A stretch of DNA of 64,000 bases from Roseovarius mucosus (GTDB taxonomy: Bacteria > Pseudomonadota > Alphaproteobacteria > Rhodobacterales > Rhodobacteraceae), in the NCBI RefSeq assembly GCF_002080415.1, contig NZ_CP020474.1, forward strand, positions 3,857,501 to 3,921,500, in the 5' to 3' direction. The notes beneath the pieces were generated by a model. The model had not been told where the DNA came from, did no database searches, and worked only from the letters and a program-made list of their open reading frames with translations. Both the position numbers and the translations under genes were made by a program. Below are positions 9,847 to 25,139 of this stretch, in pieces; position 1 is the first letter of the stretch; each line of letters opens with the position of its first letter.

Positions 9847-10737
9847 TTAAAACTGCTTGCGGGCCACGCGCTGAGCGATTTTGACAAAGTTGTGCACATG
9901 CACGCCCTGTTCGTCGAGGCGGTGATTGACTGATAGGCTGGTGCGGGCAATCTCTGGCTCAATGCGCAGAAACTTCATGCCCTTGCGCGGCGCGGTCGAG
10001 ACCGATTCCGGCACGATGCACACGCCCTCGCCAATCGCCACTAGGCTGAGTGCTGTTTGCAAATCCATGCACCACAGGCGCAGAGGGGCGGTGAACCCTG
10101 CGCCCTCAATAGCCTTGAGCACAAAGTCGGCATAGCTGGGCCGGGGGTGTTCGGGGTAAAGCACAAGATTATGCGTCTCAAGCCGCTCCAGCTTGGCCAC
10201 GGTGCGACCGCCGGTGTCGACCGTATCGGGCAGGGCCAAGATCAGCTTTTCCTCCATCAATTCCTTGGTAACGAATTCCGGATCGCGCAGCGCTGGCCGG
10301 GCAAAGGCCACGTCAAGCTCGCGCGAGACAAGCGCGCGATGCAGCTGCGCGTTGTTCATCGGGTTAAGGCTCAGATTGACCTCGGGATAATTGGCGCGAA
10401 AGGATTTGATGATGGTTGGCAGGATGCCAAAGGTGGCCGATCCAACAAACCCGACACGCAGCCGCCCCTCTGCCCCTTGACCTAATCGGCGCACTTCAAG
10501 TTTGGTATCCTCGAGCTGTGCAAGTATCGACCGCCCGCGTTCGAGCAAGCGCTCGCCGGCCTGTGTCAGGCTGATGGCACTGCGGCCCCGGTTGAACAGG
10601 ATCGCGCCCAACTCTTCTTCGATCTGTTTGATCTGGCGACTAAGCGGCGGCTGCGCCATGTCGAGCCGTTCCGCGGCGCGGCCAAAGTGCAACTCTTCTG
10701 CCACCGCTATGAAATAGGTTAGTTGCTTGAAATTCAT
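9847..10737 (-). CDS. LysR-family transcriptional regulator (CatR/BenM-like)
   Basis: 296 aa. N-terminal winged helix-turn-helix (FKQLTYFIAVAEELHFGRAA, then LDMAQPPLSRQIKQIEEELG, residues about 4-45) and a substrate-binding domain beginning LRVGFVGSATFGILP. The HFGRAAERLDMAQPPLSRQI pattern is that of CatR, BenM and ClcR, which respond to muconate-type inducers of intradiol pathways. ATG 10737 is chosen over 10755 because GGAGGG lies just upstream. It follows the dioxygenase gene on the same strand, separated by a terminator, so it is probably transcribed separately. It likely controls the divergent dioxygenase / hydrolase promoters. Confidence 0.9.
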   Translation of the reverse strand: MNFKQLTYFIAVAEELHFGRAAERLDMAQPPLSRQIKQIEEELGAILFNRGRSAISLTQAGERLLERGRSILAQLEDTKLEVRRLGQGAEGRLRVGFVGSATFGILPTIIKSFRANYPEVNLSLNPMNNAQLHRALVSRELDVAFARPALRDPEFVTKELMEEKLILALPDTVDTGGRTVAKLERLETHNLVLYPEHPRPSYADFVLKAIEGAGFTAPLRLWCMDLQTALSLVAIGEGVCIVPESVSTAPRKGMKFLRIEPEIARTSLSVNHRLDEQGVHVHNFVKIAQRVARKQF

Positions 10738-10834: not shown

Positions 10835-11710
10835 TTATTCGGCGGCCACGGCCTGCGCCGCAGCGTCTGCCTTGAGCACAAAGTCGAATTCGAAATGCAG
10901 GTCTGTGCCAAGCTCTTTGGGGGCCGGTTTGAACTTGCCGATCAGGCTGTCCTTGACTGCGAACACGCTGTCATCATCCAGCCATTTGCTGTCACCGTCA
11001 TAGATTTGGCTGATCAACTGACGATATCCGTCTTTCGAGATGATGAAATGCATATGTCCGGGGCGGTAGGGATGATGGCCCATGTAGCGCAGCAATTCGC
11101 CCGCCGTTTCCGTATCGGGGATCGGATAGGGCACGGGGCGCACGGCGACAAAGGCGTAGTGACCATTCTCATCGGTCTCGAACCGGCCGCGCAGGTTGTA
11201 TTCCGGTTGATCGGGATCGAGGTTTTCGTAGATGCCATTGGGCGCATCTTCCCAGACATCAAGCGTGACACCGGCAATGCCGTTGCCTGCTGCGTCGCGG
11301 ATATAGCCCTCGAAATAGGCGGTTTCCTCGGTGTCGTAATGTTTCTGGATGGTCGATGCCCCCTTGGGCAGCACAGGTGGATTCTCGCGGTAAAACGGCC
11401 CCAGCACGGTCGACTCGCTCTCGGGGCCGTCAATCGGGTTGGACAGCATGTCCACCAGCACTTCGACGCCGAGAATATCGCCCAAAAGGATGAATTCCTG
11501 CCGGTTCTCGTCGCAGGTCTGGCCTGCGCGCTTGAGGTATTCGCAGCCCTCAAGAAACTCGCCGTGTTGCAGGTTCACATCCTTGCAAAAGGCGTGCAGG
11601 TGGCGAATGAGCGCGGTCATGATGTCGCGCTGACGCTCAGTGATCTCACCGTGCTTGCCGAGGCTTGCGATCACCACATCGGTGATGTTCTCCAGATTTA
11701 CGATTCCCAT
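10835..11710 (-). CDS. Intradiol ring-cleavage dioxygenase (catechol/hydroxyquinol 1,2-dioxygenase family)
   Basis: 291 aa, cytosolic non-heme Fe(III) dioxygenase. An N-terminal helical dimerisation domain (residues about 1-100) precedes the catalytic beta sandwich with LGPFYRENPP. All four Fe ligands are visible: Tyr171 (EYNLRGR), Tyr195 (PVPYPIP), His219 and His221 (RPGHMHF). HPYRPGHMHF is closer to hydroxyquinol 1,2-dioxygenases (HPYRPAHIHF) than to catechol enzymes (RPAHIHFF), so hydroxyquinol, giving maleylacetate, is the favoured substrate; catechol remains possible. Divergent from the SCP2-like / hydrolase / BKACE operon and followed by its own terminator and a LysR gene. Confidence 0.9.
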   Translation of the reverse strand: MGIVNLENITDVVIASLGKHGEITERQRDIMTALIRHLHAFCKDVNLQHGEFLEGCEYLKRAGQTCDENRQEFILLGDILGVEVLVDMLSNPIDGPESESTVLGPFYRENPPVLPKGASTIQKHYDTEETAYFEGYIRDAAGNGIAGVTLDVWEDAPNGIYENLDPDQPEYNLRGRFETDENGHYAFVAVRPVPYPIPDTETAGELLRYMGHHPYRPGHMHFIISKDGYRQLISQIYDGDSKWLDDDSVFAVKDSLIGKFKPAPKELGTDLHFEFDFVLKADAAAQAVAAE

Positions 11711-11813
11711 GGGTTCTCCTCCAAACGGGGTTTCATATGGCGTGGGGCAGGCCGGGGCGCACCCTGTGGTCCTCGTTGTCGATCAAGGCGGGTGTCAAAC
11801 CAATGCCGCAGGC

Positions 11814-11829
11814 GGTATCGCGTGATACC
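11814..11829. promoter_or_regulatory. Candidate operator in the dioxygenase/hydrolase divergent promoter region
   Basis: Perfect inverted repeat GGTATC-GCGT-GATACC roughly midway between the divergent start codons (11710 and 11903). LysR regulators of intradiol pathways bind short dyads in exactly such divergent regions. Assignment to the neighbouring LysR protein is inference. Confidence 0.45.
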
Positions 11830-11902
11830 CGTTCCGGCATAGATCAATCGCCCCCTTAAATGCCACCTCTAGCACAGACCTAGCATTATGAGGGAGGCAG
11901 AG

Positions 11903-12283
11903 GTGATCGACAGATTTCGCGAGATTGCGACACGGCTAGAGGACCAGCCCCATCTCTTGCGCCTTGGGCGGCTCTTTTCCGAGACGGTGCTGATCGAGAT
12001 TGAGGGCGACGAAATTTATCTGACCTTTGACACGGGCCGGATCGTGTCGGTTGTAGCCGGGCCAAGCCGCAAAACGCCGTGGCGCTTTGCGTTGCGCACT
12101 GACGCTGACGCACTGGAGCAGTTCTGGCAGGCGCGCCCCGCGCCCGGATTTCACGATGTCTTTGGGCTGGCCAAAATCGGGCGTGGGCGGATCGACGGCG
12201 ACATTCTGAGCCTGGTCAAGAACCTGCGGTTTTTCAAAGAGGTCATGGCGCTTGCGCGGTGCAAAGAGGAGGCTGCCGCATGA
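11903..12283 (+). CDS. SCP2-like small protein of the aromatic cluster
   Basis: 126 aa from GTG 11903, which has AGGGAGG five bases upstream; an in-frame ATG at 11888 lacks a ribosome-binding site. The fold pattern (two beta strands LIEIEGDEIYLTF and IVSVVAGP, WRFALRTDADALEQFW, then IGRGRIDGDILSLVKNLRFF and a terminal helix) resembles SCP2 sterol-carrier-like domains that bind hydrophobic ligands. The stop overlaps the start of the hydrolase (ATGA), so the two are coupled and probably act in the same process, for example binding a substrate or product. Biochemical role unknown. Confidence 0.65.
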   Translation: MIDRFREIATRLEDQPHLLRLGRLFSETVLIEIEGDEIYLTFDTGRIVSVVAGPSRKTPWRFALRTDADALEQFWQARPAPGFHDVFGLAKIGRGRIDGDILSLVKNLRFFKEVMALARCKEEAAA

Positions 12284-13137
12284 GCATCGAGCCCATCACT
12301 GGACGTTACATCACGGTCGAGATCGCGGGCGCGCCGCGCCGCATTTATTTCGAAGAGGCGGGGCAGGGGCGGCCTGTTCTGTGCCTGCACACCGCCGGGG
12401 CCGATACGCGGCAATGGCGTCATCTGATGAACGATGCCAAGGTGACAGCGGACCATCGCCTGATCGCCTTTGACATGCCGTGGCATGGCAAATCCCTGCC
12501 GCCAGAGGGGTTCGAGACCGAAGAATACCTGCTTACGACCGAAGACTATATCGAGACGGTGTTGGCGGTAGTGGCCGGATTGGGGCTGGAGCGCCCCATT
12601 CTGGCGGGCTGTTCCATGGGTGGGCGGATTGCGTTGCAACTGGCGGCGCTGCACCCGGAGCATTTCGGCGGATTTATCGCCATCGAGGCATCGGATTTTC
12701 AGCCCGCATGGTATGATATCGACTGGTTCCACCGTCCCGATGCCCATGGCGGCGAGATGGGCGCGGCGCTCGTGTCGGCCAATATCTCGCCCTATGCTCC
12801 AAATGCCGAACGCTGGAACACGCTCTGGATGTTCATGCAGTCGGGGCCGGGCGTGTTTCGGGGGGATCTGAGCTTTTACACGCGCGATGACAGTTTGATC
12901 GGGCGATTGGCGCAGATCGACACTGGCAAAACTCCGGTGCATCTGCTGGTCGGGGCCTATGATCTGACCTGCACGCCCGAGGATGCGAAACGCACGGCGG
13001 CCGCCATTCCCGGCGCGACGGTTTCGGTGATGGATGAGCTAGGCCATTTCCCGATGAGCGAGCATCCGCAAGGGTTTCGCCCGTTTTTCCTTGATGCCCT
13101 TGCGCGGATGCCGCGCGTGGCCGCGCAAGCGGCCTGA
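12280..13137 (+). CDS. Alpha/beta hydrolase (possible enol-lactone or ring-cleavage product hydrolase)
   Basis: 285 aa alpha/beta-hydrolase fold. Oxyanion region LHTAGADTRQW, nucleophile Ser112 in GCSMGG, an acid in LVGAYDLTCTPED and a catalytic His in ELGHFPMSEHP near the C-terminus. ATG 12280 is fixed by the ATGA overlap with the upstream gene. The family includes 3-oxoadipate enol-lactonase (PcaD) and carbon-carbon bond hydrolases. Between an intradiol dioxygenase and a BKACE enzyme, an enol-lactonase or ester hydrolase is the natural guess. The insertion WFHRPDAHGGEMG in the lid region is unlike textbook PcaD, so the exact reaction is open. Confidence 0.85.
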   Translation: MSIEPITGRYITVEIAGAPRRIYFEEAGQGRPVLCLHTAGADTRQWRHLMNDAKVTADHRLIAFDMPWHGKSLPPEGFETEEYLLTTEDYIETVLAVVAGLGLERPILAGCSMGGRIALQLAALHPEHFGGFIAIEASDFQPAWYDIDWFHRPDAHGGEMGAALVSANISPYAPNAERWNTLWMFMQSGPGVFRGDLSFYTRDDSLIGRLAQIDTGKTPVHLLVGAYDLTCTPEDAKRTAAAIPGATVSVMDELGHFPMSEHPQGFRPFFLDALARMPRVAAQAA

Positions 13138-13151
13138 GAGGAGTTTCCGAC

Positions 13152-14012
13152 ATGACCAATCCCTGCATCATCTGCGTGGCAATCACGGGAAGCTTGCCGC
13201 AGAAATCCGACAATCCGGCGGTGCCGATCACTGTGACCGAACAGGTCGAAGCGACCCATGAGGCGTTTGAGGCCGGGGCCACAATCGTGCATGCCCATGT
13301 GCGCAATGACGATGGCTCGCCCTCCTCCGACCCTGAGAAATTCGCGCGCCTCAAAGAGGGGATCGAGACCCATTGCCCCGGTATGATCATTCAATTTTCC
13401 ACCGGCGGGCGCTCTGGTGCGGGTCAGACGCGCGGCGCGATGCTGTCCTTGCGCCCTGACATGGCCTCGCTCTCGGTCGGGTCCAACAACTTTCCCACAC
13501 GGGTCTATGAGAACCCGCCCGATCTGGTCAACTGGCTGGCGGGGGAAATGCGTGAGTATGAGGTCAAGCCCGAGATCGAGGCGTTTGACCTAAGCCATAT
13601 CCTCAAGGCCAAGGACATGGCCGATCAAGGCCAACTTCTTGGCACGCCCTATGTGCAGTTCGTGATGGGCGTCAAGAATGCGATGCCGGTCGACCGCGAT
13701 GTGTTCGACTATTACATCCACACGGTCAAACGCCTGTTTGGCCCGGATGCGCCCTGGTGCGCGGCGGGGATCGGGCGGCATCAGGTCACGTTGAATGACT
13801 GGGCCGTTGCGGCAGGCGGGCATGCCCGCACCGGGCTTGAGGATAACGTGCGGCTGGATCGTGATACCCTCGCGCCCTCTAATGCCGCTTTGGTGCGGCG
13901 GGTGGTCGAGATCTGCGAGCGCCACGCCCGCCCTGTGGCCACCTGGCGCGAGGCGCGGCAGATGCTGGGCCTGCGCGCGCAACATGGTCTCAAGGATGGC
14001 AAAGCGGCGTGA
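13152..14012 (+). CDS. BKACE-family beta-keto acid cleavage enzyme
   Basis: 286 aa TIM-barrel protein of the Kce/BKACE family (DUF849), which condenses a beta-keto acid with acetyl-CoA to give acetoacetate and a new acyl-CoA. The zinc ligands are visible: His47 and His49 (VHAHVR) and Glu230 (GLEDNVR); SLPQKSDNPAVPITVTE is the usual N-terminal signature. RBS GAGAGGAG precedes ATG 13152, 14 bases after the hydrolase. The family's founding member acts on 3-keto-5-aminohexanoate (lysine fermentation), but members also use beta-ketoadipate and other acids. The intradiol dioxygenase context makes 3-oxoadipate the most attractive substrate here. Confidence 0.9.
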   Translation: MTNPCIICVAITGSLPQKSDNPAVPITVTEQVEATHEAFEAGATIVHAHVRNDDGSPSSDPEKFARLKEGIETHCPGMIIQFSTGGRSGAGQTRGAMLSLRPDMASLSVGSNNFPTRVYENPPDLVNWLAGEMREYEVKPEIEAFDLSHILKAKDMADQGQLLGTPYVQFVMGVKNAMPVDRDVFDYYIHTVKRLFGPDAPWCAAGIGRHQVTLNDWAVAAGGHARTGLEDNVRLDRDTLAPSNAALVRRVVEICERHARPVATWREARQMLGLRAQHGLKDGKAA

Positions 14013-17161: not shown

Positions 17162-17345
17162 AGGCGGGCAAATCGCAACTGCCTTGACGTGGATCAGGGG
17201 CGGGTAGACTGCCCGCGCGCCTCCATTGACCCATGCAGGCACCCCGGGCATAACCGACGCAGAGCGGCGGTGACCCGACGCTTTGACACAGGCATGCTGC
17301 CCCGGCGGATCAAAGCCTAGGTAGCCAGAAAGATTGAGCCGGACC

Positions 17346-18377
17346 ATGCGCAGCACCAAGATCATCCATGTCGTTTCCTGTCATGCCGAGGGCGAGGTGG
17401 GCGATGTCATCGTGGGCGGCGTAACCCCGCCCCCCGGCGATACGATCTGGGAGCAGCGCAAATGGATTGCCGAGGATCAGACCCTGCGCAATTTCATGCT
17501 GAACGAGCCGCGTGGCGGCGTGTTCCGGCATGTCAATCTGCTGGTGCCGCCCAAGCACCCAGAGGCACAGGCCGCCTGGATCATCATGGAGCCCGAGGAT
17601 ACACCACCGATGTCGGGATCAAACTCGATCTGCGTGTCGACCGTGCTGCTAGACAGCGGCATCATCCCGATGCAAGAGCCGGTGACGCATATGGTGCTTG
17701 AGGCGCCGGGTGGGCTTGTGCGGGTGCGCGCCGAGTGCGCCAACGGCAAGGCCGAGCGCATCTTTGTCGAGAACTTGCCCTCCTTTGCCAGCCGTTTGGG
17801 CGTGCCGCTTGATGTGCCGGGTGTCGGGCAGATTACTGTGGATACGGCCTTTGGCGGGGATAGTTTCGTGGTGGTCGATCCCGTGGCGCTTGGCGTCGAT
17901 CTGGTCGAGGATAACGCGCGCCGGATTGCAGAGCTTGGCATCCGCATCACCAATGCGGCCAATGCCCAGTTCCGGTTCGAGCATCCCGAAAAGCCAGATT
18001 GGGCGCATCATTCGTTCTGCCTATTTGCCGGGCCGATCACGCGCGAGGGGAGCGCCCTGCGCGCGCAATCGGTGGTCGCCATTCAGCCCGGCAAGCTGGA
18101 CCGGTCGCCGACCGGCACGGCGGTCTCGGCGCGCATGGCGATCCTCGCGGCGCGCGGCGAGATGGGCGAAGACGACCGCTTTACCGGCGTGTCGATCATC
18201 GGGTCAGAATTTCACGGGCGGATTCTGGGTCGGGTGCAGGTTGGCGGGCAAGAGGCCATTCGCCCCGAGATTAGTGGGCGGGCGTGGATCACCGGCACGG
18301 CACAGCATATGCTGGACCCCAGCGATCCGTGGCCGGGCGGTTATCGGCTTTCGGATACATGGCCACGGATCATTTAA
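17346..18377 (+). CDS. Proline racemase-family protein, probable trans-3-hydroxy-L-proline dehydratase
   Basis: 343 aa, proline racemase fold with [10 protein letters not shown] near the N-terminus. Both classical catalytic cysteines are replaced: Ser90 in [10 protein letters not shown] (MCGH in racemases) and Thr256 in DRSPTGTAV (SPCGTG in racemases). Thr at the second site is known from trans-3-hydroxy-L-proline dehydratases, which form pyrroline-2-carboxylate. The reductase for that product is convergent with this gene, 30 bases away, which supports the call. ATG 17346 is preferred over a TTG at 17334; no strong ribosome-binding site is present. The Ser/Thr pair and the TAV after Thr256 depart from better-known members, so activity could differ. 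Confidence 0.8.
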
Positions 18378-18407
18378 GGGGCAGGGCGGCGGGACGCGCC
18401 CCCGCAC

Positions 18408-19445
18408 TCAGACTGTGACCGCAGCCAGCCCTTCGGATTCGAACCGCGCCAGTTGCGCCAGTTCTGCATCGCTCAGGGCAATGCCGCCGCTCAGGGCGTT
18501 TGCCCGCGCCGCAAAGCGCCGTTCAGAGGGCAGGCGCGCGCCTTGGCCACTGATGGCGCTCAGCAGGCGCTCGCCTTCGGCAATCGGATCGCGCCCGCTG
18601 CGTGCGGCGAAGGTCGCCGGATCGAGCGCTAGGACCAATGCGCCATGACGCGGCAAGAGGCTGGTGCCGCCGGAAAACTCTAGCGCTTCCTTGCTCATGA
18701 ATTCACCCAGCATGGCACCGGCCAGCAATTCGACCATGGTCGAAATCGCCGATCCCTTGTGCCCGCCAAAGGGCAGCATCGCGCCCGCCAATGCCGCCTC
18801 GGGATCGGTGGTGGGGTTGCCGTCCTTGTCCATTGCCCAGCCTTCGGGGATGGGCGTGTCTGCGCGGCGGTGCAATTCGATCTCGCCCCGCGCGGCGACG
18901 CTTGTGGCAAAATCAAACACATAAGGATGCGGGCCGGGGCGCGGCCAGCCAAAGGCAATCGGGTTGGTGCCCAAGAGCGGCTCTTTGCCGCCCGTGGGCG
19001 CGACCGAGGAATAGCTGGGGCACATCGAGAGCGACGCAAGGCCCCGCGCGGCCAAAGCCTCGACATCGTGCCAGAGCGCCGAGAAATGCAGGCAATCACG
19101 GATCACCAGAGCCGCCAGCCCGGTCTCGCGCGCACGTGCGGCCAAGGCATCGACAGCCGCGTCAAAGGCCGGGTTGGAAAATCCGCCGCCCGCGTCCACT
19201 TCGATCATCGCGCGGCCTGTATCCTGCAGCACCGGCACAGCATCGGGCACCACCTTGCCCGCTGCGATCACCCGCAAGCAGCCTTCGATCCGGTAGATGC
19301 CATGCGACTTGCAATGATCCCGCTCACCCGCAACGATGACCCGTGCCACGGATACTGCGCTCTGAGGGCGCACGCCGCAGGACTCGAAAATCGACGTCAC
19401 GCGCGCCAAAAGGCTATCAACGGAAATCACGGTCGGCTCGGCCAT
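18408..19445 (-). CDS. Ldh2/MDH-family oxidoreductase, probable delta1-pyrroline-2-carboxylate reductase
   Basis: 345 aa member of the malate/L-lactate/ureidoglycolate dehydrogenase family (type 2 fold, NAD(P)H): SHGIYRIEGCL near residue 50, GGFSNPAFD, LGTNPIAFGWPRP and PFGGHKGSAISTMVELL. The subgroup includes delta1-piperideine-2-carboxylate/delta1-pyrroline-2-carboxylate reductases. Beside a trans-3-hydroxyproline dehydratase and an AcnX-type cis-3-hydroxyproline dehydratase, reduction of pyrroline-2-carboxylate to L-proline is the obvious role. It is 27 bases downstream of the XRE-cupin regulator on the same strand, so these two are probably one transcript. Confidence 0.82.
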   Translation of the reverse strand: MAEPTVISVDSLLARVTSIFESCGVRPQSAVSVARVIVAGERDHCKSHGIYRIEGCLRVIAAGKVVPDAVPVLQDTGRAMIEVDAGGGFSNPAFDAAVDALAARARETGLAALVIRDCLHFSALWHDVEALAARGLASLSMCPSYSSVAPTGGKEPLLGTNPIAFGWPRPGPHPYVFDFATSVAARGEIELHRRADTPIPEGWAMDKDGNPTTDPEAALAGAMLPFGGHKGSAISTMVELLAGAMLGEFMSKEALEFSGGTSLLPRHGALVLALDPATFAARSGRDPIAEGERLLSAISGQGARLPSERRFAARANALSGGIALSDAELAQLARFESEGLAAVTV

Positions 19446-19472
19446 GCGGGCGGTCTCCTTCAGGATTGGGGG

Positions 19473-20108
19473 CTATTTGTCCACGTCGGTATAGGTGCAG
19501 GCCCAGAACACCTTGGTTTCGGTATCATCAATCGCGCGCAACCCGTGTTTGATGGTGCTGTCGAAATAGGCGCAATCGCCGGGCTCCATGATCACCGGCT
19601 CGTAATGCTCGACCGTCAATTCAACGCGACCCGAAAGAACATAGAGCGTCTCTTCGCCGTCATGCGATTCCAACTCGTCGCGCGTGAGGGGGGCGCGTTT
19701 CTCGACCAGTGTCACCAGCGGGATGATCTTTTTTTCGGCCAGCGCGTTGCACAGCACCTCGTATTCGAAATTCTTGGCGCGCACCTTGCGTCCTTGGCCT
19801 GCGCGCGTCACGGTCATGCGCGTGGTCTGTGTCGCGTCATGATCGGCGGAAAAGAGCCGCTCCATGCCAATATCATAGGCGCGGGCGATCTTGATGAGGT
19901 TCTCATAGCTGGGTGAAACGCGCCCGTTCTCGATTTTGTGGATGGTCGAAAGCGCCAGACCTGTGCGCTGCGCCGCCACTTCGAGCGTGTAGCCGCAGGC
20001 CTGCCGCACGGCCTTCATGCGTGCGCCCAAATCCGCGCGCAGTTGATGGCGCTCTACGTCCCAATCATCCGCGGCACTCTCGACGGAGGTTTTTTCTGTT
20101 TCGGCCAT
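19473..20108 (-). CDS. XRE-cupin transcriptional regulator of the hydroxyproline island
   Basis: 211 aa: N-terminal XRE helix-turn-helix (residues about 25-85; LEVAAQRTGLALSTIHKIEN) and C-terminal cupin domain (SHDGEETLYVLSGRVELTVE; PGDCAYFDSTIKHGLRA), a pattern common in regulators of amino acid and amine catabolism that bind a small ligand in the cupin barrel. ATG 20108 is preferred; an in-frame ATG at 20132 would add eight residues (MTGKKRKI), and neither has a strong ribosome-binding site. Divergent from the AcnX gene, so the 20109-20265 interval is likely its control region. Confidence 0.88.
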   Translation of the reverse strand: MAETEKTSVESAADDWDVERHQLRADLGARMKAVRQACGYTLEVAAQRTGLALSTIHKIENGRVSPSYENLIKIARAYDIGMERLFSADHDATQTTRMTVTRAGQGRKVRAKNFEYEVLCNALAEKKIIPLVTLVEKRAPLTRDELESHDGEETLYVLSGRVELTVEHYEPVIMEPGDCAYFDSTIKHGLRAIDDTETKVFWACTYTDVDK

Positions 20109-20150
20109 AATTTTTCTTTTCTTACCAGTCATGATTGTTTAAGCATATAT

Positions 20151-20167
20151 TTGTGTTGGGCACAACA
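20151..20167. promoter_or_regulatory. Candidate operator between the XRE-cupin regulator and AcnX genes
   Basis: Two overlapping dyads: TGTTG-GGCA-CAACA at 20154-20167 and TTGTG-N5-CACAA at 20151-20165, in the AT-rich part of the divergent region. Binding by the adjacent regulator is an inference from position and symmetry. Confidence 0.4.
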
Positions 20168-20265
20168 GTAGCAATCCTGATATTGCAGGGGGAGACGGAA
20201 TATCGGACTTTTCCGTCGTCCGGACCGAATTTCTCAGGAAACAAACTTCAACAAAGGGTGATCTC

Positions 20266-21966
20266 ATGCCAGACCTGATTGTTGCCGCCGAGGTTCAGGG
20301 GCCAATCCTGCTCTGCGATGAGGGGCTGAGCGTCTGGGGCGGTGTTGATCCCCAGAGCGGGCGGATCATTGACGCGCATCACCCGCAGCGGGGGCAATCG
20401 CTGGCCGGTCACGTTGTAATGATGCCGACCAGTCGTGGCTCTTGCACGGGTAGTGGCGTACTTTTGGGGCTGGCCTTTGCTGGCACGGCGCCCAAGGCGC
20501 TGATCTTTCGCGAGGGCGAGGATATTCTGACTTTGGGCGCGCTTGTCGCCACGCGGCTCTTTGATCGACCGATTGCCGTTCTGCGCCTCTCGGCCTCCGA
20601 CTACGACCGTCTGGCCCAGCAATCCCATGCCAAGATCACCGCCACCCATCTGCGCGCAGGTGATCTGGAGATGCCGCTGACCTCTGTGGCCTCCGAGGGG
20701 CTGACCCTGTCGGATAGCGACCGCGCCTTTCTTGCCGGGGAGCATGGCGAGGCGGCGCAACTGGCGATGGAGATCATCACCACGCTGGCCGCCGCCCAAG
20801 GCGCGCCCAGCCTGACCGATGTGACCCGCGTGCATATCGACGGTTGCATCTATGCCAGCCCTGCCTTTCTGACCTTTGCCCGCGCCATGGCGGACAAGGG
20901 CGGGCGGGTGCGGGTGCCCACCACGATGAACGCCATTTCCGTCGATCACGCCAATTGGCGCGCGCAGGGCGTGGCCGAAGATTTCGGCCTTGCCGCCAGC
21001 CAGCTGGCCGATGCCTATGTCGAAATGGGTGCGCGTCCCAGTTTCACCTGTGCGCCCTATCTGCTTGAGGACAAGCCGGTCGCGGGCGAGGATATTGCCT
21101 GGGCCGAAAGCAATGCGGTGATCTACGCCAACACGGTTCTGGGCGCGCGCACCGTGAAGCATGCCGATTTCATGGACCTCTGCATTGCGCTGACAGGGCG
21201 TGCCGCACGCTCTGGCGTCTATCTCGACCAGAACCGCGCAGCCCGTCGGATCATCGACATCGACGTGCCTGAAGGGATCGACGATGCCTTTTGGCCGATG
21301 CTGGGCTGGATCGTTGGTCAGGTCGCCCCTGACCGCATCCCGCTCTTGCGCGGGCTGGAGGGGCTGAATCCCTCCGAGGATGATCTCAAGGCGCTTTGCG
21401 CGGCCTATGGCACCACCTCTGCCTCGCCGATGATGCATATTGAGGGGGTCACGCCCGAGGCGGACATGCCGCCCACGCCCGATGCCGATCACGCCCGCAT
21501 CACGGCGGCTGATTTTGCCCGGCTTTGGTCGGGGTTCAATCAAGGTGCGGATAAGGTCGATCTGGTGGCGCTTGGCAGTCCGCATTTTTCCGCCGCCGAA
21601 TGCAGCGCCTTTGCGGCATTGATGGAGGGGCGGCAGGTCAATCCCGCCGTAGCCACGATCATCACCCTTGGTCGCGGCACGCTAAACACCATCACCGCGA
21701 GCGGCGTCAAAGCACGGCTTGAGGCCGCCGGTGTGACCATCGTGCCCGATATCTGCTGGTGTTCGATTTCCGAGCCGGTTTTTCCGCCTTCGGCAAAGGT
21801 TCTGATGACCAACTCTGGCAAATATGCGCATTACGCGCCGGGTCTCAGCAATCGTGCCGTGCGGTTTGGCTCGCTCGCGCAATGTGCGCAGACCGCGCAA
21901 TCTGGCATGGCCCCCACAACCTCACCGCCGTGGATTGCCGCGGCTCCAGCCCTTGCTGGCCACTGA
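20266..21966 (+). CDS. Aconitase X fusion protein, probable cis-3-hydroxy-L-proline dehydratase
   Basis: 566 aa. Residues about 1-130 match the AcnX small subunit (swivelling domain; PTSRGSCTGSGVLLGL), and residues about 145-560 the large DUF521/AcnX domain (VHIDGCIYASPAFLTFA, VPTTMNAISVDHANW, GARPSFTCAPYL, CWCSISEPVFPP, TNSGKYAHYAPG). In many bacteria and archaea these are two genes; here they are one polypeptide, as in bacterial cis-3-hydroxy-L-proline dehydratases. Cysteines at SCTGS, TCAPY and DICWC are candidate metal ligands. The product would be pyrroline-2-carboxylate, feeding the reductase at 18408. RBS AAGGGTGATCTC precedes ATG 20266. First gene of a plus-strand run through 25139. 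Confidence 0.9.
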   Translation: MPDLIVAAEVQGPILLCDEGLSVWGGVDPQSGRIIDAHHPQRGQSLAGHVVMMPTSRGSCTGSGVLLGLAFAGTAPKALIFREGEDILTLGALVATRLFDRPIAVLRLSASDYDRLAQQSHAKITATHLRAGDLEMPLTSVASEGLTLSDSDRAFLAGEHGEAAQLAMEIITTLAAAQGAPSLTDVTRVHIDGCIYASPAFLTFARAMADKGGRVRVPTTMNAISVDHANWRAQGVAEDFGLAASQLADAYVEMGARPSFTCAPYLLEDKPVAGEDIAWAESNAVIYANTVLGARTVKHADFMDLCIALTGRAARSGVYLDQNRAARRIIDIDVPEGIDDAFWPMLGWIVGQVAPDRIPLLRGLEGLNPSEDDLKALCAAYGTTSASPMMHIEGVTPEADMPPTPDADHARITAADFARLWSGFNQGADKVDLVALGSPHFSAAECSAFAALMEGRQVNPAVATIITLGRGTLNTITASGVKARLEAAGVTIVPDICWCSISEPVFPPSAKVLMTNSGKYAHYAPGLSNRAVRFGSLAQCAQTAQSGMAPTTSPPWIAAAPALAGH

Positions 21967-22011
21967 TCCGCCTCCACAGGCACAACGCCACGCATCCAAA
22001 GGAGTTTTTCG

Positions 22012-22971
22012 ATGAACAAAGACGTCTTTCACGGCACCATCCCCGCCCTGCTGACCCCCTGCACCCCGGACCGCAAACCCGATTTTGACGCGCTGGTGCG
22101 CAAGGGGCAGGAAATGATCGCGGCAGGCATGTCGGGCGTGGTCTATTGCGGGTCCTGCGGTGACTGGCCGCTTTTGACGGACGCCGAGCGGATGGAGGGC
22201 GTCGAACGCCTGACCAAGGCCGGCGTGCCCGTGGTTGTGGGCACTGGCGCCATCAACACGAAATCCGCCGTGGCCCATGCCGCGCATGCGCAAAAGGTGG
22301 GGGCTGCGGGCCTTATGGTGATCCCGCGCGTTCTGTCGCGGGGCCTGTCTGTCGCCGCACAGCGCAACCATTTCAAGGCCATTTTAGAGGCGGCCCCAGA
22401 TGTGCCCGCGATCATCTACAACAGCCCCTATTACGGCTATTCGACCAAGGCCGATCTCTTCTTTGCCCTGCGCGCCGAGCATAAGAACCTGATCGGCTTC
22501 AAAGAGTTTGGCGGCAAGAATGATCTGAGCTACGCCGCTGAACACATCACCTCGCAGGATGATGACGTGATCCTGATGGTGGGGGTGGATACCGAGGTTT
22601 ACCACGGCTTTGTCAAATGCGGGGCGGTCGGGGCCATTACCGGCATCGGCACGATGTTCCCCAAAGAGGCGCTTTTGCAGGTGGCACTGTCACGCCGCGC
22701 AGCGACGGGTTGCCCCGAGGCGGACATGCGCGCGCGCGAATTGGCCGATGCGTTTTCCGTGATTGCCAAGTTCGACGAAGGCGTCGATCTGGTGCTCTAT
22801 TTCAAGCACCTCATGGTGCTGAAGGGCGAAGAGGAATACCGCCTCAACATCAACGAGACTGATGCGCTCTCGCCCTCTCAGGCGCGGTTCTGCGAGGCGC
22901 AGTTCCATCAATTCAACGCATGGTTCGCCAATTGGGTCAAACAGGGCGGGGTGATCGCTGAATGCATGTGA
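22012..22971 (+). CDS. DapA-family lyase, probable delta1-pyrroline-4-hydroxy-2-carboxylate deaminase
   Basis: 319 aa TIM-barrel of the dihydrodipicolinate synthase/N-acetylneuraminate lyase family. Schiff-base Lys164 (LIGFKEFGG) and Tyr136 (IIYNSPYYG) are present; the phosphate/carboxylate loop reads GSCGDWPLLT rather than the GTTGE of true DapA, which argues against lysine biosynthesis. The following gene is a 4-hydroxyproline epimerase and overlaps by ten bases, so the role is almost certainly deamination of pyrroline-4-hydroxy-2-carboxylate to 2-oxoglutarate semialdehyde. Good RBS (AAAGGAG) seven to eight bases upstream of ATG 22012. Confidence 0.88.
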   Translation: MNKDVFHGTIPALLTPCTPDRKPDFDALVRKGQEMIAAGMSGVVYCGSCGDWPLLTDAERMEGVERLTKAGVPVVVGTGAINTKSAVAHAAHAQKVGAAGLMVIPRVLSRGLSVAAQRNHFKAILEAAPDVPAIIYNSPYYGYSTKADLFFALRAEHKNLIGFKEFGGKNDLSYAAEHITSQDDDVILMVGVDTEVYHGFVKCGAVGAITGIGTMFPKEALLQVALSRRAATGCPEADMRARELADAFSVIAKFDEGVDLVLYFKHLMVLKGEEEYRLNINETDALSPSQARFCEAQFHQFNAWFANWVKQGGVIAECM

Positions 22972-23876
22972 TCGACAGCCACACCGGCGGCGAGCCAACG
23001 CGCGTTATTCTGGACGGGGGGCCGGACCTTGGGTCTGGTGCCCTGTCCGAGCGCGCTCGACTGTTGGCCTCGGAGCATCGCGATTTTTACCAGTCGGTCA
23101 GTCTCGAGCCGCGTGGACAGGTGGCGATGGTCTGTGCCCTGATGGTGCCGCCAACAGACCCGACTTGCGTGACCGGCGTGATCTATTTCGACGCCGAGGC
23201 GGTGCTTGGCATGTGTGGCCATGGCACCATCGGCCTTGTGGTCACTCTGGCACATATGGGCCGGATCAAACCGGGCATTCACCGGATCGAGACGCCCGTA
23301 GGCATCGTCACCGTCGATCTTATCGACGCCAACACCGTCACCGTCACCAATATCGAGAGCCGCCGCACCCATACCGGCGTCACGGTCGAGATTGAGGGAC
23401 TTGGCGCTGTCACTGGCGATGTCGCTTATGGCGGCAATCTTTTTTTCCTTGTCGATCCCAGCCCCGTTCCGGTCCATTCCAGCAATATCCGCGCGCTGAC
23501 TGATGCCACCATCGCTGTGCGCGACGCGGTGCAGGCGCAGGGAATAGACGTGGATCACGTGATCTTTTACGGCCCCTCTGATGATGCGGCGGCGCATAGC
23601 CGCAACTTTGTCCTTTGCCCTGACAACGCCTATGACCGCTCGCCCTGTGGCACGGGATGTTCGGCACGGCTCGCCTGTCTGGCGGCTGAGGGGCGGCTGG
23701 ACGCAGGGCAAGAGATCATGCAGGAAAGCGTGATCGGCAGCACCTATCGGCTGTCCTATACCCCCGGCCCGAACGGCGGCGTGATCCCCTCGATCACTGG
23801 GCGCGCCTATGTGATGGCCGAAAGCACATTGCTTTTTGATCCCAACGATCCGTTTCGCAACGGTATCCGTCTCTAA
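22962..23876 (+). CDS. 4-hydroxyproline 2-epimerase
   Basis: 304 aa proline-racemase-family enzyme with both catalytic cysteines: Cys85 (GMCGHGT) and Cys229 (RSPCGTG). The N-terminus HVIDSHTGGEPTRVI and the family length fit hydroxyproline 2-epimerases, which convert trans-4-hydroxy-L-proline to cis-4-hydroxy-D-proline. ATG 22962 lies inside the end of the deaminase gene (ten-base overlap), implying coupled translation. Contrasts with the Ser/Thr paralogue at 17346, showing functional division within the island. Confidence 0.93.
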   Translation: MHVIDSHTGGEPTRVILDGGPDLGSGALSERARLLASEHRDFYQSVSLEPRGQVAMVCALMVPPTDPTCVTGVIYFDAEAVLGMCGHGTIGLVVTLAHMGRIKPGIHRIETPVGIVTVDLIDANTVTVTNIESRRTHTGVTVEIEGLGAVTGDVAYGGNLFFLVDPSPVPVHSSNIRALTDATIAVRDAVQAQGIDVDHVIFYGPSDDAAAHSRNFVLCPDNAYDRSPCGTGCSARLACLAAEGRLDAGQEIMQESVIGSTYRLSYTPGPNGGVIPSITGRAYVMAESTLLFDPNDPFRNGIRL

Positions 23877-23897
23877 CCCTTATAACAAAGGTGCCGC

Positions 23898-25139
23898 ATG
23901 GCCCGCTCAGACATCATCGTCATCGGTGCCGGCATCATCGGCGTGACCAGCGCGCTTGCGCTGCAACGGGAGGGTCACCGCGTCCGCATTCTGGACCGCA
24001 AGGGCGTGGCGGCAGAAACCTCGCGTGGCAATGCAGGCGCGTTCGCCTATACCGATATCGAGCCGCTGGCGACGCCGGGCATCCTGCGCAAGGCACCGAA
24101 ATGGCTGCTCGATCCGCTGGGGCCTTTGTCGATCCCACCGGCCTATGCGCTGCCGCTTATGCCGTGGATGCTGCGGTTCTGGCGGGCGAGTTGGCAGGAT
24201 CGCTACGCGGCGGCTGTGGCGGCACAGGCGAGCCTGATGCACCATTCGCGTGCGGCCTTGGAGCGTTTGATCGCCAATGTCGACGGCGAGCCGTTGATGC
24301 GCCGCGAAGGGCAGTTGCAGGTCTATGAGGGCGAGGCGGCCTATCGCGCGAGCCTGCCCGCATGGACCCTGCGCCGTCAGCATGGCGTGCGCTTTGACCT
24401 CTTGGAAAGCCCCGCTGCCTTGGCCGAGATTCAACCCGGTCTCAGCCCACGGTTTACACATGCGGGCTATACCCCCGACTGGATGAACACCGTCGATCCG
24501 GCGCGGTGGACCGAATATCTGGCGCAACAGTTTGTGGCCGCTGGTGGCGTGATCGCGACCGCAGATATTCGCGCGCTGCGACAGGCGAGCGACGGCGTCG
24601 AGATTGAGACCGCCACTGGCACGATCCGTGCCGATCAGGTGGTTCTGGCTGCCGGTGCTTGGTCGCACCATCTGGCGCGCACGCTGGGGGACACGATCCC
24701 GCTCGAAACCGAGCGCGGTTACAACACCACCTTTTCCACCGCCAGTTTCGATCTGCGCACGCATCTGACCTTTGCCGATCACGGCTTTGTCGTGAGCAAG
24801 ATCGGCGAGGGGCTGCGCGTGGGTGGGGCTGTGGAACTGGGCGGCCTGCGCCTTGCGCCCAACTACAAACGCGCGGAAACGCTGCTGCGCAAGGCCCGCG
24901 ATTTCCTGCCGGGGTTTGATCCACAGGGCGGCACGCAATGGATGGGCTTTCGTCCCTCGTTGCCTGATAGCCTGCCGATCATTTCGCGCGCGCCGCGCGC
25001 CGACCGGGTGATCTATGCCTTTGGTCACGGGCATCTGGGGCTGACGCAATCGGCGGGCACGGCTGAATTGGTGGCGGCGCTTGCCGCACACCGTGATCCG
25101 GCGATAGAACTGCAGGCGTTTGACGCCGCGCGATTTTAA
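23898..25139 (+). CDS. FAD-dependent oxidoreductase, probable D-hydroxyproline dehydrogenase
   Basis: 413 aa DAO-family flavoprotein: dinucleotide-binding GAGIIGVTSALALQREGH (residues about 10-27), a second FAD contact ADQVVLAAGAWSHHLARTLG, and C-terminal GHGHLGLTQSAGTAELVAAL. Similar to DadA and to monomeric D-hydroxyproline dehydrogenases. It follows the epimerase by 21 bases with an AAAGGTG ribosome-binding site. Expected to oxidise cis-4-hydroxy-D-proline to pyrroline-4-hydroxy-2-carboxylate, passing electrons to the respiratory chain or oxygen. Convergent with the ABC transporter genes. Confidence 0.88.
   Translation: MARSDIIVIGAGIIGVTSALALQREGHRVRILDRKGVAAETSRGNAGAFAYTDIEPLATPGILRKAPKWLLDPLGPLSIPPAYALPLMPWMLRFWRASWQDRYAAAVAAQASLMHHSRAALERLIANVDGEPLMRREGQLQVYEGEAAYRASLPAWTLRRQHGVRFDLLESPAALAEIQPGLSPRFTHAGYTPDWMNTVDPARWTEYLAQQFVAAGGVIATADIRALRQASDGVEIETATGTIRADQVVLAAGAWSHHLARTLGDTIPLETERGYNTTFSTASFDLRTHLTFADHGFVVSKIGEGLRVGGAVELGGLRLAPNYKRAETLLRKARDFLPGFDPQGGTQWMGFRPSLPDSLPIISRAPRADRVIYAFGHGHLGLTQSAGTAELVAALAAHRDPAIELQAFDAARF

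What the first reader, a model, noticed from the sequence alone, without database searches (positions are those of the whole stretch)
10835..14012. Intradiol dioxygenase paired with a BKACE enzyme: possible thiolase-free end of the beta-ketoadipate route
The cluster joins an intradiol ring-cleavage dioxygenase (all four Fe ligands present), a CatR-like regulator, an alpha/beta hydrolase, an SCP2-like protein and a BKACE enzyme with intact zinc ligands. BKACE chemistry (beta-keto acid + acetyl-CoA giving acetoacetate + acyl-CoA) applied to 3-oxoadipate would give succinyl-CoA and acetoacetate in one step, replacing the usual CoA-transferase plus thiolase. No pcaIJ/pcaF, muconate cycloisomerase or maleylacetate reductase is in the window, so either they are elsewhere or the substrate is not a standard catechol.
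Basis: partly seen in the sequence, partly recalled or inferred. Interest (0 to 1): 0.75.

Follow-up and report, generated by a model that had tools for sequence, protein, structure and literature searches.

The report
Benzoate pathway with two substituted steps
A marine bacterium's gene set for breaking down benzoate through catechol seems to use two substitutes: an unfamiliar pair of proteins where a standard isomerase and lactonase are missing, and a one-step cleavage enzyme at the end, which would explain a gap that others had noted in a relative that grows on benzoate.

Summary
The genes are real and at the stated coordinates. The puzzle ("no catB, perhaps not a catechol") is an edge effect: benABCD and a muconate cycloisomerase (CatB) lie just left of the window, CatB 2.3 kb outside it. 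So the likely substrate is catechol from benzoate, although the dioxygenase resembles hydroxyquinol enzymes. The BKACE passes NCBIfam's 3-oxoadipate:acetyl-CoA equivalog (501 vs 350 bits), and no thiolase passes the PcaF cut-off in the genome. That end of the pathway is already proposed in print for Methylobacterium. The less expected part is the middle: CatC was not found in the genome, and an SCP2-fold protein plus an alpha/beta hydrolase sit in the cassette instead. Among 29 catB loci in 316 Rhodobacteraceae genomes, 23 have the SCP2-fold gene and no CatC nearby, 4 have CatC and not the gene, 2 have neither. Sulfitobacter D7, published as growing on benzoate with every catechol-branch gene found except CatC, carries this cassette (without a nearby BKACE). 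I propose that the pair turns muconolactone into 3-oxoadipate; which partner isomerises is unproven.

The parts
9847..10737 (-). LysR-type regulator, BenM/CatM-like
   Evidence: Pfam LysR_substrate + HTH_1; NCBIfam CatM and BenM both about 139 bits, below their cut-offs; the best-scoring model is AlsR, 235 bits, also below cut-off
10835..11710 (-). Intradiol ring-cleavage dioxygenase, proposed CatA; the only PF00775 protein found in the genome
   Evidence: nearest solved structures are hydroxyquinol-type, but relatives sit with benABCD/catB
11814..11829 (.). Perfect dyad GGTATC-N4-GATACC in the divergent promoter, possible LysR operator
   Evidence: TATC-N4-GATA within 300 bp upstream of the SCP2-like gene in 51 of 79 loci; whole-locus background 0.0135 per 300 bp
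11888..12283 (+). SCP2-fold protein, 131 aa (SCP2L); candidate muconolactone isomerase or partner of the hydrolase
   Evidence: co-occurrence with CatB
12280..13137 (+). Alpha/beta hydrolase (ABH), overlaps the previous gene by 4 bases; candidate enol-lactonase in place of PcaD; likely triad Ser112-Asp228-His256
   Evidence: (PcaD model 70 bits, cut-off 256)
13152..14012 (+). BKACE of the 3-oxoadipate:acetyl-CoA type

Best explanation
This is the distal half of a benzoate/catechol ortho-cleavage cassette; the proximal half (catB-benABCD and a LIV-type transporter) lies just left of the window. Proposed flow: benzoate to catechol (BenABCD), catechol to cis,cis-muconate (dioxygenase 10835-11710), muconate to muconolactone (CatB, outside the window), muconolactone to 3-oxoadipate by the SCP2-fold protein plus alpha/beta hydrolase in place of CatC plus PcaD, and 3-oxoadipate + acetyl-CoA to succinyl-CoA + acetoacetate by BKACE in place of PcaIJ plus PcaF. 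Acetoacetate is then activated by a CoA-transferase and split by a general thiolase. Within the pair I think it most likely that the SCP2-fold protein makes the double-bond shift (muconolactone to enol-lactone) and the hydrolase opens the enol-lactone. Shown here: gene identities by model, linkage, no CatC and no PcaF above cut-off in the genome, exchange of cassettes between genomes. Inferred: every catalytic role of the pair, and the BKACE substrate in this organism.
For: benABCD pass their equivalog cut-offs and CatB its subfamily cut-off. CatC in the own genome: best 11.6 bits, cut-off 26.7. In 316 family genomes SCP2L (above 140 bits) is in 25 and CatB in 26, both in 23 (Fisher p 1e-29, genomes not independent). 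Of 29 catB loci, 23 have SCP2L and no CatC within 20 kb, 4 (two of them neighbours in G151) have CatC and no SCP2L, 2 neither. Genome G117 has both kinds apart: catB-catC-benABCD with a true PcaD (320 bits, cut-off 256) and BKACE, and diox-SCP2L-ABH-BKACE-catB. SCP2L accompanies two deep CatB clades; the tree forces at least 5 label changes. Sulfitobacter D7 grows on benzoate, its authors found every catechol-branch gene except CatC (PMC9873259, passages), and its plasmid carries this cassette. BKACE: NF053568; CoA-transferase genes follow BKACE in Sulfitobacter CB2047; Roseivivax THAF197b has pcaIJF and no BKACE in the 28.8 kb around the same cassette.
Against: SCP2L without CatB in 2 of 25 genomes (G005, G104). 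Four loci, Gemmobacter fulvus, Paracoccus yeei, Xanthobacter dioxanivorans and G223, have catB with neither CatC nor SCP2L in the stretch (a GST-like gene in three), and so has G208:C1, so CatC may be replaceable in other ways. At genome level the CatC/SCP2L exclusion among the 26 CatB genomes is weak (p 0.052): G117 and G208 hold both. Ten of the 14 genomes with CatC have no CatB at the cut-off used, so PF02426 alone does not mark this pathway. In Leisingera thetidis the dioxygenase stretch lacks SCP2L and ABH, although a Leisingera thetidis SCP2L protein on a contig of the same length is listed (P0039). Distant SCP2L-ABH pairs occur in other settings. Known SCP2 folds mostly carry lipids (recalled). 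BKACE is in 58 of 80 loci, not all, and none lies near the D7 cassette, whose authors assign PcaIJF.
Confidence: 0.66

Rival explanations
1. The hydrolase alone does both isomerisation and lactone hydrolysis; the SCP2-fold protein is a non-catalytic partner that stabilises it or hands over substrate.
For: The SCP2L-ABH pair also exists in other contexts. In 24 family loci ABH is more conserved (71-89% identity to the window's) than SCP2L (53-81%). The genes overlap by 4 bases.
Against: Cassette-type SCP2L keeps His22 and Lys62 in at least 29 of 30 rows while none of four distant rows has them, and Lys96 is Arg in all four. But Asp90 is kept in all four, His89 and Asp105 in two, Glu42 and Asp72 in one, so this is only a hint at a special chemical role.
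Confidence: 0.27
2. The CatC step is done by an unrelated gene elsewhere or without an enzyme; SCP2L-ABH is only a PcaD substitute.
For: Some catB cassettes lack both CatC and SCP2L (G223, G208:C1, Gemmobacter, P. yeei, Xanthobacter). A CatC-like protein below the PF02426 threshold could be missed.
Against: CatC and SCP2L exclude one another at locus level. SCP2L is never found without an adjacent ABH: 118 of 118 copies, repeats of the same genome included (101 by the rule, 17 overlapping, see Tried and rejected). The D7 authors too found no CatC.
Confidence: 0.2
3. Hydroxyquinol route: the dioxygenase makes maleylacetate, and BKACE acts on maleylacetate or on 3-oxoadipate made from it.
For: Closest solved structures are 6-chlorohydroxyquinol and hydroxyquinol dioxygenases; several relatives are named hydroxyquinol 1,2-dioxygenase by their sources.
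Against: benABCD and CatB in the same cassette; the only Fe-ADH above cut-off scores best on a 4-hydroxybutyrate dehydrogenase model and passes no NCBIfam cut-off.
Confidence: 0.04
4. 3-Oxoadipate is handled by the CoA-transferase pair at C1:1379589-1380853 and a general thiolase, and BKACE has another substrate.
For: The pair belongs to the pcaI/scoA and pcaJ/scoB subfamilies, which do not separate PcaIJ from acetoacetate transferase; three thiolases score 317-399 bits on the PcaF model.
Against: No thiolase reaches the PcaF cut-off (597); BKACE passes the 3-oxoadipate equivalog and sits in the cassette; Roseivivax has pcaIJF and no BKACE near the same cassette.
Confidence: 0.1

Closest known systems
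Catechol branch of the beta-ketoadipate pathway (BenABCD, CatABC, PcaD, PcaIJ, PcaF)
   Same: BenABCD, intradiol dioxygenase, CatB and a BenM/CatM-like LysR regulator
   Different: No CatC found in the genome; no canonical PcaD, PcaIJ or PcaF in the cassette; SCP2L-ABH and BKACE stand there instead
Methylobacterium pca cluster with DUF849/BKACE in place of pcaIJ/pcaF (PMC8963497, PMC12379598; passages read)
   Same: BKACE proposed to turn 3-oxoadipate into succinyl-CoA and acetoacetate
   Different: Protocatechuate branch there, catechol branch here; no SCP2L-ABH swap was mentioned in the passages read
Sulfitobacter D7 plasmid benzoate cluster (PMC9873259; passages read)
   Same: Same cassette; the authors noted the missing CatC
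   Different: No BKACE within the 24.8 kb fetched; the authors assign PcaIJF; in the passages read they do not link the SCP2-like gene or the hydrolase to the gap
SCP2 fold (2cx7, UbiJ-SCP2 6h6o)
   Same: Fold
   Different: No Pfam match; paired with a hydrolase in a catabolic cassette; lipid binding untested
DUF849 structures 3fa5, 3chv, 3no5
   Same: Very close relatives of this BKACE (513, 478 and 418 bits)
   Different: Named as unknown or uncharacterized in the listing

Membership tests
BKACE (PF05853), 3-oxoadipate type | Curated model score | tested here: met
   PF05853 315.8 bits, cut-off 24.8; NF053568 501.5, cut-off 350
BKACE (PF05853), 3-oxoadipate type | Zinc ligands His, His, Glu | tested here: met
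   His47, His49, Glu230 present; ligand roles recalled
BKACE (PF05853), 3-oxoadipate type | Activity on 3-oxoadipate | not testable with these tools
   Needs an assay
Catechol branch of the beta-ketoadipate pathway | CatB | tested here: met
   TIGR02534 489.8 bits, cut-off 334.95, 2.3 kb left of the window
Catechol branch of the beta-ketoadipate pathway | CatA acting on catechol | tested here: inconclusive
   Intradiol dioxygenase present; catechol models score 144 and 127 bits against cut-offs of 392 and 404, hydroxyquinol enzymes are the nearest structures; context argues for catechol
Catechol branch of the beta-ketoadipate pathway | CatC | tested here: not met
   PF02426 best 11.6 bits, cut-off 26.7, own genome
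Catechol branch of the beta-ketoadipate pathway | PcaD | tested here: inconclusive
   The hydrolase of the cassette scores 70 bits, cut-off 256; the rest of the genome was not searched for PcaD
Catechol branch of the beta-ketoadipate pathway | PcaF | tested here: not met
   Best 399 bits, cut-off 597; none of the 14 control genomes passed the cut-off either, so it is strict
Catechol branch of the beta-ketoadipate pathway | PcaIJ | tested here: inconclusive
   One pair in the pcaI/scoA and pcaJ/scoB subfamilies, far from the cassette
Muconolactone isomerase CatC (PF02426) | SCP2L matches the family | tested here: not met
   No Pfam family at E up to 10 for the window's copy; the model has an SCP2 fold. 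It can work like CatC only as an unrelated protein
SCP2 fold | Fold | tested here: met
SCP2 fold | Lipid binding | not testable with these tools
   Needs an experiment
Hydroxyquinol pathway | Maleylacetate reductase | tested here: inconclusive
   Two PF00465 hits, one above cut-off; that one scores best on 4-hydroxybutyrate dehydrogenase but passes no cut-off. No model specific to the reductase was run

The most novel reading that the evidence does not exclude
The SCP2-fold protein is a new, CatC-unrelated muconolactone isomerase, an enzyme built on a fold known for carrying lipids. Together with its hydrolase it forms an alternative lower catechol pathway that spread, often on plasmids, through marine Rhodobacterales and some Rhizobiales.
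Probability: 0.4. Interest if true: 0.75.

Novelty: new variant of a known kind. Interest (0 to 1): 0.62.

Why it matters
It offers a concrete, testable candidate for the CatC gap reported in a benzoate-growing, alga-associated bacterium, questions a frequent name (hydroxyquinol dioxygenase where catechol dioxygenase is more likely), and suggests a role for DUF849 structures listed as unknown. If true, catechol degradation in marine Rhodobacterales cannot be predicted from CatC or PcaIJF markers alone.

Tried and rejected
Hydroxyquinol/maleylacetate route: set aside after benABCD and CatB were found beside the window and no clear maleylacetate reductase appeared. Other BKACE copies as the 3-oxoadipate enzyme: the copy at C1:1987900 is the 3,5-dioxohexanoate type (494 bits, cut-off 430) and the copy at C1:3218044 passes no NCBIfam cut-off. 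Structure model of the hydrolase: mean pLDDT 69, not used. Sigma-70 promoter scan of the divergent region: nothing. The classic BenM site pattern ATAC-N7-GTAT: 0 of 79 (pattern recalled). Literature for a CatC substitute: the listings led only to the D7 remark; one search was spoiled by a prefix that matched 'without catch'. The library lacks most subscription journals. Bastard et al. 2014 is not held and was not read; its content reaches me only through passages of PMC8963497, PMC12379598 and PMC4922564. PMC6365646 and PMC11961710 were seen in passages (other BKACE roles, general chemistry); PMC13386836 was only searched for four terms, with no hit.

Weak spots in my own work: several CatC reference sequences were translated on the wrong strand or came out empty; one search repeated the CatC test with correct sequences and found CatC only in six loci (L017, L019, L167, L168, L170, L172), in none of which one search shows SCP2L. 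In one search row G193 was dropped (wrong frame picked), and the script picked the same frame for the two G151 rows, which sit on a long branch; Xanthobacter and Rhizobium jaguaris rows were not put in. In one search the adjacency rule counted 101 of 118 SCP2L copies; the other 17, listed there, each have the hydrolase overlapping on the same strand, so I count 118 of 118. The 118 contain repeats of one genome (for example L010 and L150). One search scored at most six candidates a genome. Of the 755 plasmid records with a dioxygenase match I fetched 17 regions, chosen from the best 25 listed. Of the four distant SCP2L-ABH pairs only the surroundings of two (L163, L165) were checked by Pfam. 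On re-checking I lowered the main confidence from 0.68 to 0.66, the novel case from 0.42 to 0.40 and raised the first rival from 0.25 to 0.27, because the residue pattern proved less clear-cut and one more catB cassette with neither gene (Xanthobacter) had to be counted.
Full report
Observation. SCP2L and ABH overlap by four bases (11888-12283 and 12280-13137), and BKACE starts 14 bases after ABH ends. The dioxygenase and LysR run the other way, so the dioxygenase and SCP2L share a divergent promoter region that holds a perfect dyad GGTATC-N4-GATACC (11814-11829). A dyad of the form TATC-N4-GATA lies within 300 bases upstream of SCP2L in 51 of 79 related loci, against 0.0135 per 300 bases over whole loci.

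Where the pathway starts. The window is G000:C1:3857501-3921500 of a 4.38 Mb genome in three contigs, rated 100% complete, with nearest named protein relatives in Roseovarius. The stretch left of the window (L027) encodes, on the minus strand, CatB (TIGR02534, 490 bits, cut-off 335) and BenA, BenB, BenC, BenD above their equivalog cut-offs, then genes that match the LIV-type transporter of related cassettes. CatB lies 2.3 kb outside the window. The dioxygenase is the only PF00775 match of the genome. So the likely substrate is catechol from benzoate, although the closest solved structures are hydroxyquinol dioxygenases. Nine relatives at 75-85% identity on named plasmids were looked at, and all nine lie beside ben genes.

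The end of the pathway. BKACE scores 501.5 bits on NF053568, '3-oxoadipate:acetyl-CoA acetyltransferase' (cut-off 350), against 249 on the lysine-fermentation model (cut-off 382). The two other BKACE copies of the genome do not pass that model. No thiolase reaches the PcaF cut-off. One CoA-transferase pair exists far away, in the subfamilies that cover both PcaIJ and acetoacetate transferases. In Sulfitobacter CB2047 the order is SCP2L, ABH, BKACE, two CoA-transferase genes, BenE, which fits BKACE making acetoacetate that is then activated. Roseivivax THAF197b has the same cassette with pcaIJ and pcaF a few genes beyond ABH and no BKACE in 28.8 kb: a natural exchange. The 3-oxoadipate-type BKACE is in 230 of 316 family genomes, so it is common there. 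The idea is not new: PMC8963497 and PMC12379598 (passages) propose it for Methylobacterium protocatechuate clusters.

The middle of the pathway. CatC was not found in the genome (best 11.6 bits, cut-off 26.7), and ABH is far below the PcaD cut-off (70 vs 256). In 316 family genomes SCP2L above 140 bits is in 25 (30 at E 1e-5; the other five score 28-58 bits), CatB in 26, CatC in 14; 23 genomes have SCP2L and CatB, and only 4 of the 14 CatC genomes have CatB. Of 29 catB loci, 23 have SCP2L within 20 kb and no CatC, 4 have CatC and no SCP2L (two of these are neighbours in G151), 2 have neither; none of the 15 CatC places lies within 20 kb of a strong SCP2L. At genome level the exclusion among the 26 CatB genomes is weak (p 0.052), because G117 and G208 hold both. 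G117 is telling: its two catB genes lie in two cassettes, one with CatC, a true PcaD (320 bits, cut-off 256), benABCD and BKACE, the other with dioxygenase, SCP2L, ABH and BKACE. A CatB tree of 35 rows puts SCP2L-linked genes in two deep clades and needs at least five label changes (caveats under Tried and rejected), so the link is not one inherited block.

Breadth. In 80 named loci found with the SCP2L alignment (115 relatives, best 80 kept) ABH is present in 80, the dioxygenase in 75, BKACE in 58, BenD in 53, CatB in 20 (many loci end before the place where it would lie), CatC in 0. Most are Rhodobacterales by name; Roseibium, Rhizobium, Phyllobacterium and Pseudaminobacter also appear.

Independent experiment. 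PMC9873259 (passages) reports that Sulfitobacter D7 grows on benzoate as sole carbon source, that the genes of its plasmid cluster are expressed in algal conditioned media, and that all catechol-branch genes were found except CatC. The annotated plasmid shows SCP2L (B5M07_RS19070, 'hypothetical protein') and ABH (RS19065) divergent from the dioxygenase, with LysR, transporter, benABCD and a muconate cycloisomerase in the same cluster. No BKACE is in that 24.8 kb stretch; its authors list PcaIJ and PcaF.

What the pair may be. The SCP2L model has an SCP2 fold, and no match to CatC was detected. His22 and Lys62 are kept in at least 29 of 30 cassette-type rows and in none of four distant rows (26-36% identity); Lys96 is Arg in all four; His89 and Asp105 are kept in two of them, Glu42 and Asp72 in one, Asp90 in all. 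Two of the four distant pairs were looked at in context and lie near a substrate-binding protein, an aldehyde dehydrogenase or an SMP-30-like protein. I read this as an older small-molecule-handling pair that was fitted to muconolactone. Which partner isomerises is open.

Limits. All roles of the pair are inferred. The genomes share ancestry, so the p values overstate. catB cassettes with neither CatC nor SCP2L in the stretch exist (G223, G208:C1, Gemmobacter fulvus, Paracoccus yeei, Xanthobacter dioxanivorans), three with a GST-like gene, so other solutions to the same step may exist. In Leisingera thetidis SCP2L and ABH are not beside the dioxygenase. PcaD was not searched genome-wide.

Verdict.

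Noticed in passing
window 17334-25139: Hydroxyproline catabolism genes: trans-3-hydroxy-L-proline dehydratase (636 bits, cut-off 550) and an AcnX-type cis-3-hydroxy-L-proline dehydratase (899 bits, cut-off 700), with a DapA-like protein and an FAD-dependent oxidoreductase.
   Followed up: partly
L013 10142-10765; L014 10106-10741; L169: catB cassettes in Gemmobacter fulvus, Paracoccus yeei and genome G223 carry a GST-like gene next to catB and neither CatC nor SCP2L nearby: possibly a third solution to the same step.
   Followed up: partly
L163-L166: Distant SCP2L-ABH pairs outside catechol cassettes, function unknown.
   Followed up: partly
L011 1831-8861: Phaeobacter inhibens P88 plasmid carries two dioxygenase-SCP2L-ABH sets close together.
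   Followed up: no
PDB 3fa5, 3chv, 3no5: Structures named DUF849 or uncharacterized are close relatives of this 3-oxoadipate-type BKACE and could be given that tentative role.
   Followed up: no
L010, L204, L207: The cassette sits on plasmids typed as conjugative in Marinibacterium, Roseivivax and Sulfitobacter CB2047, which suggests transfer between genera.
   Followed up: no
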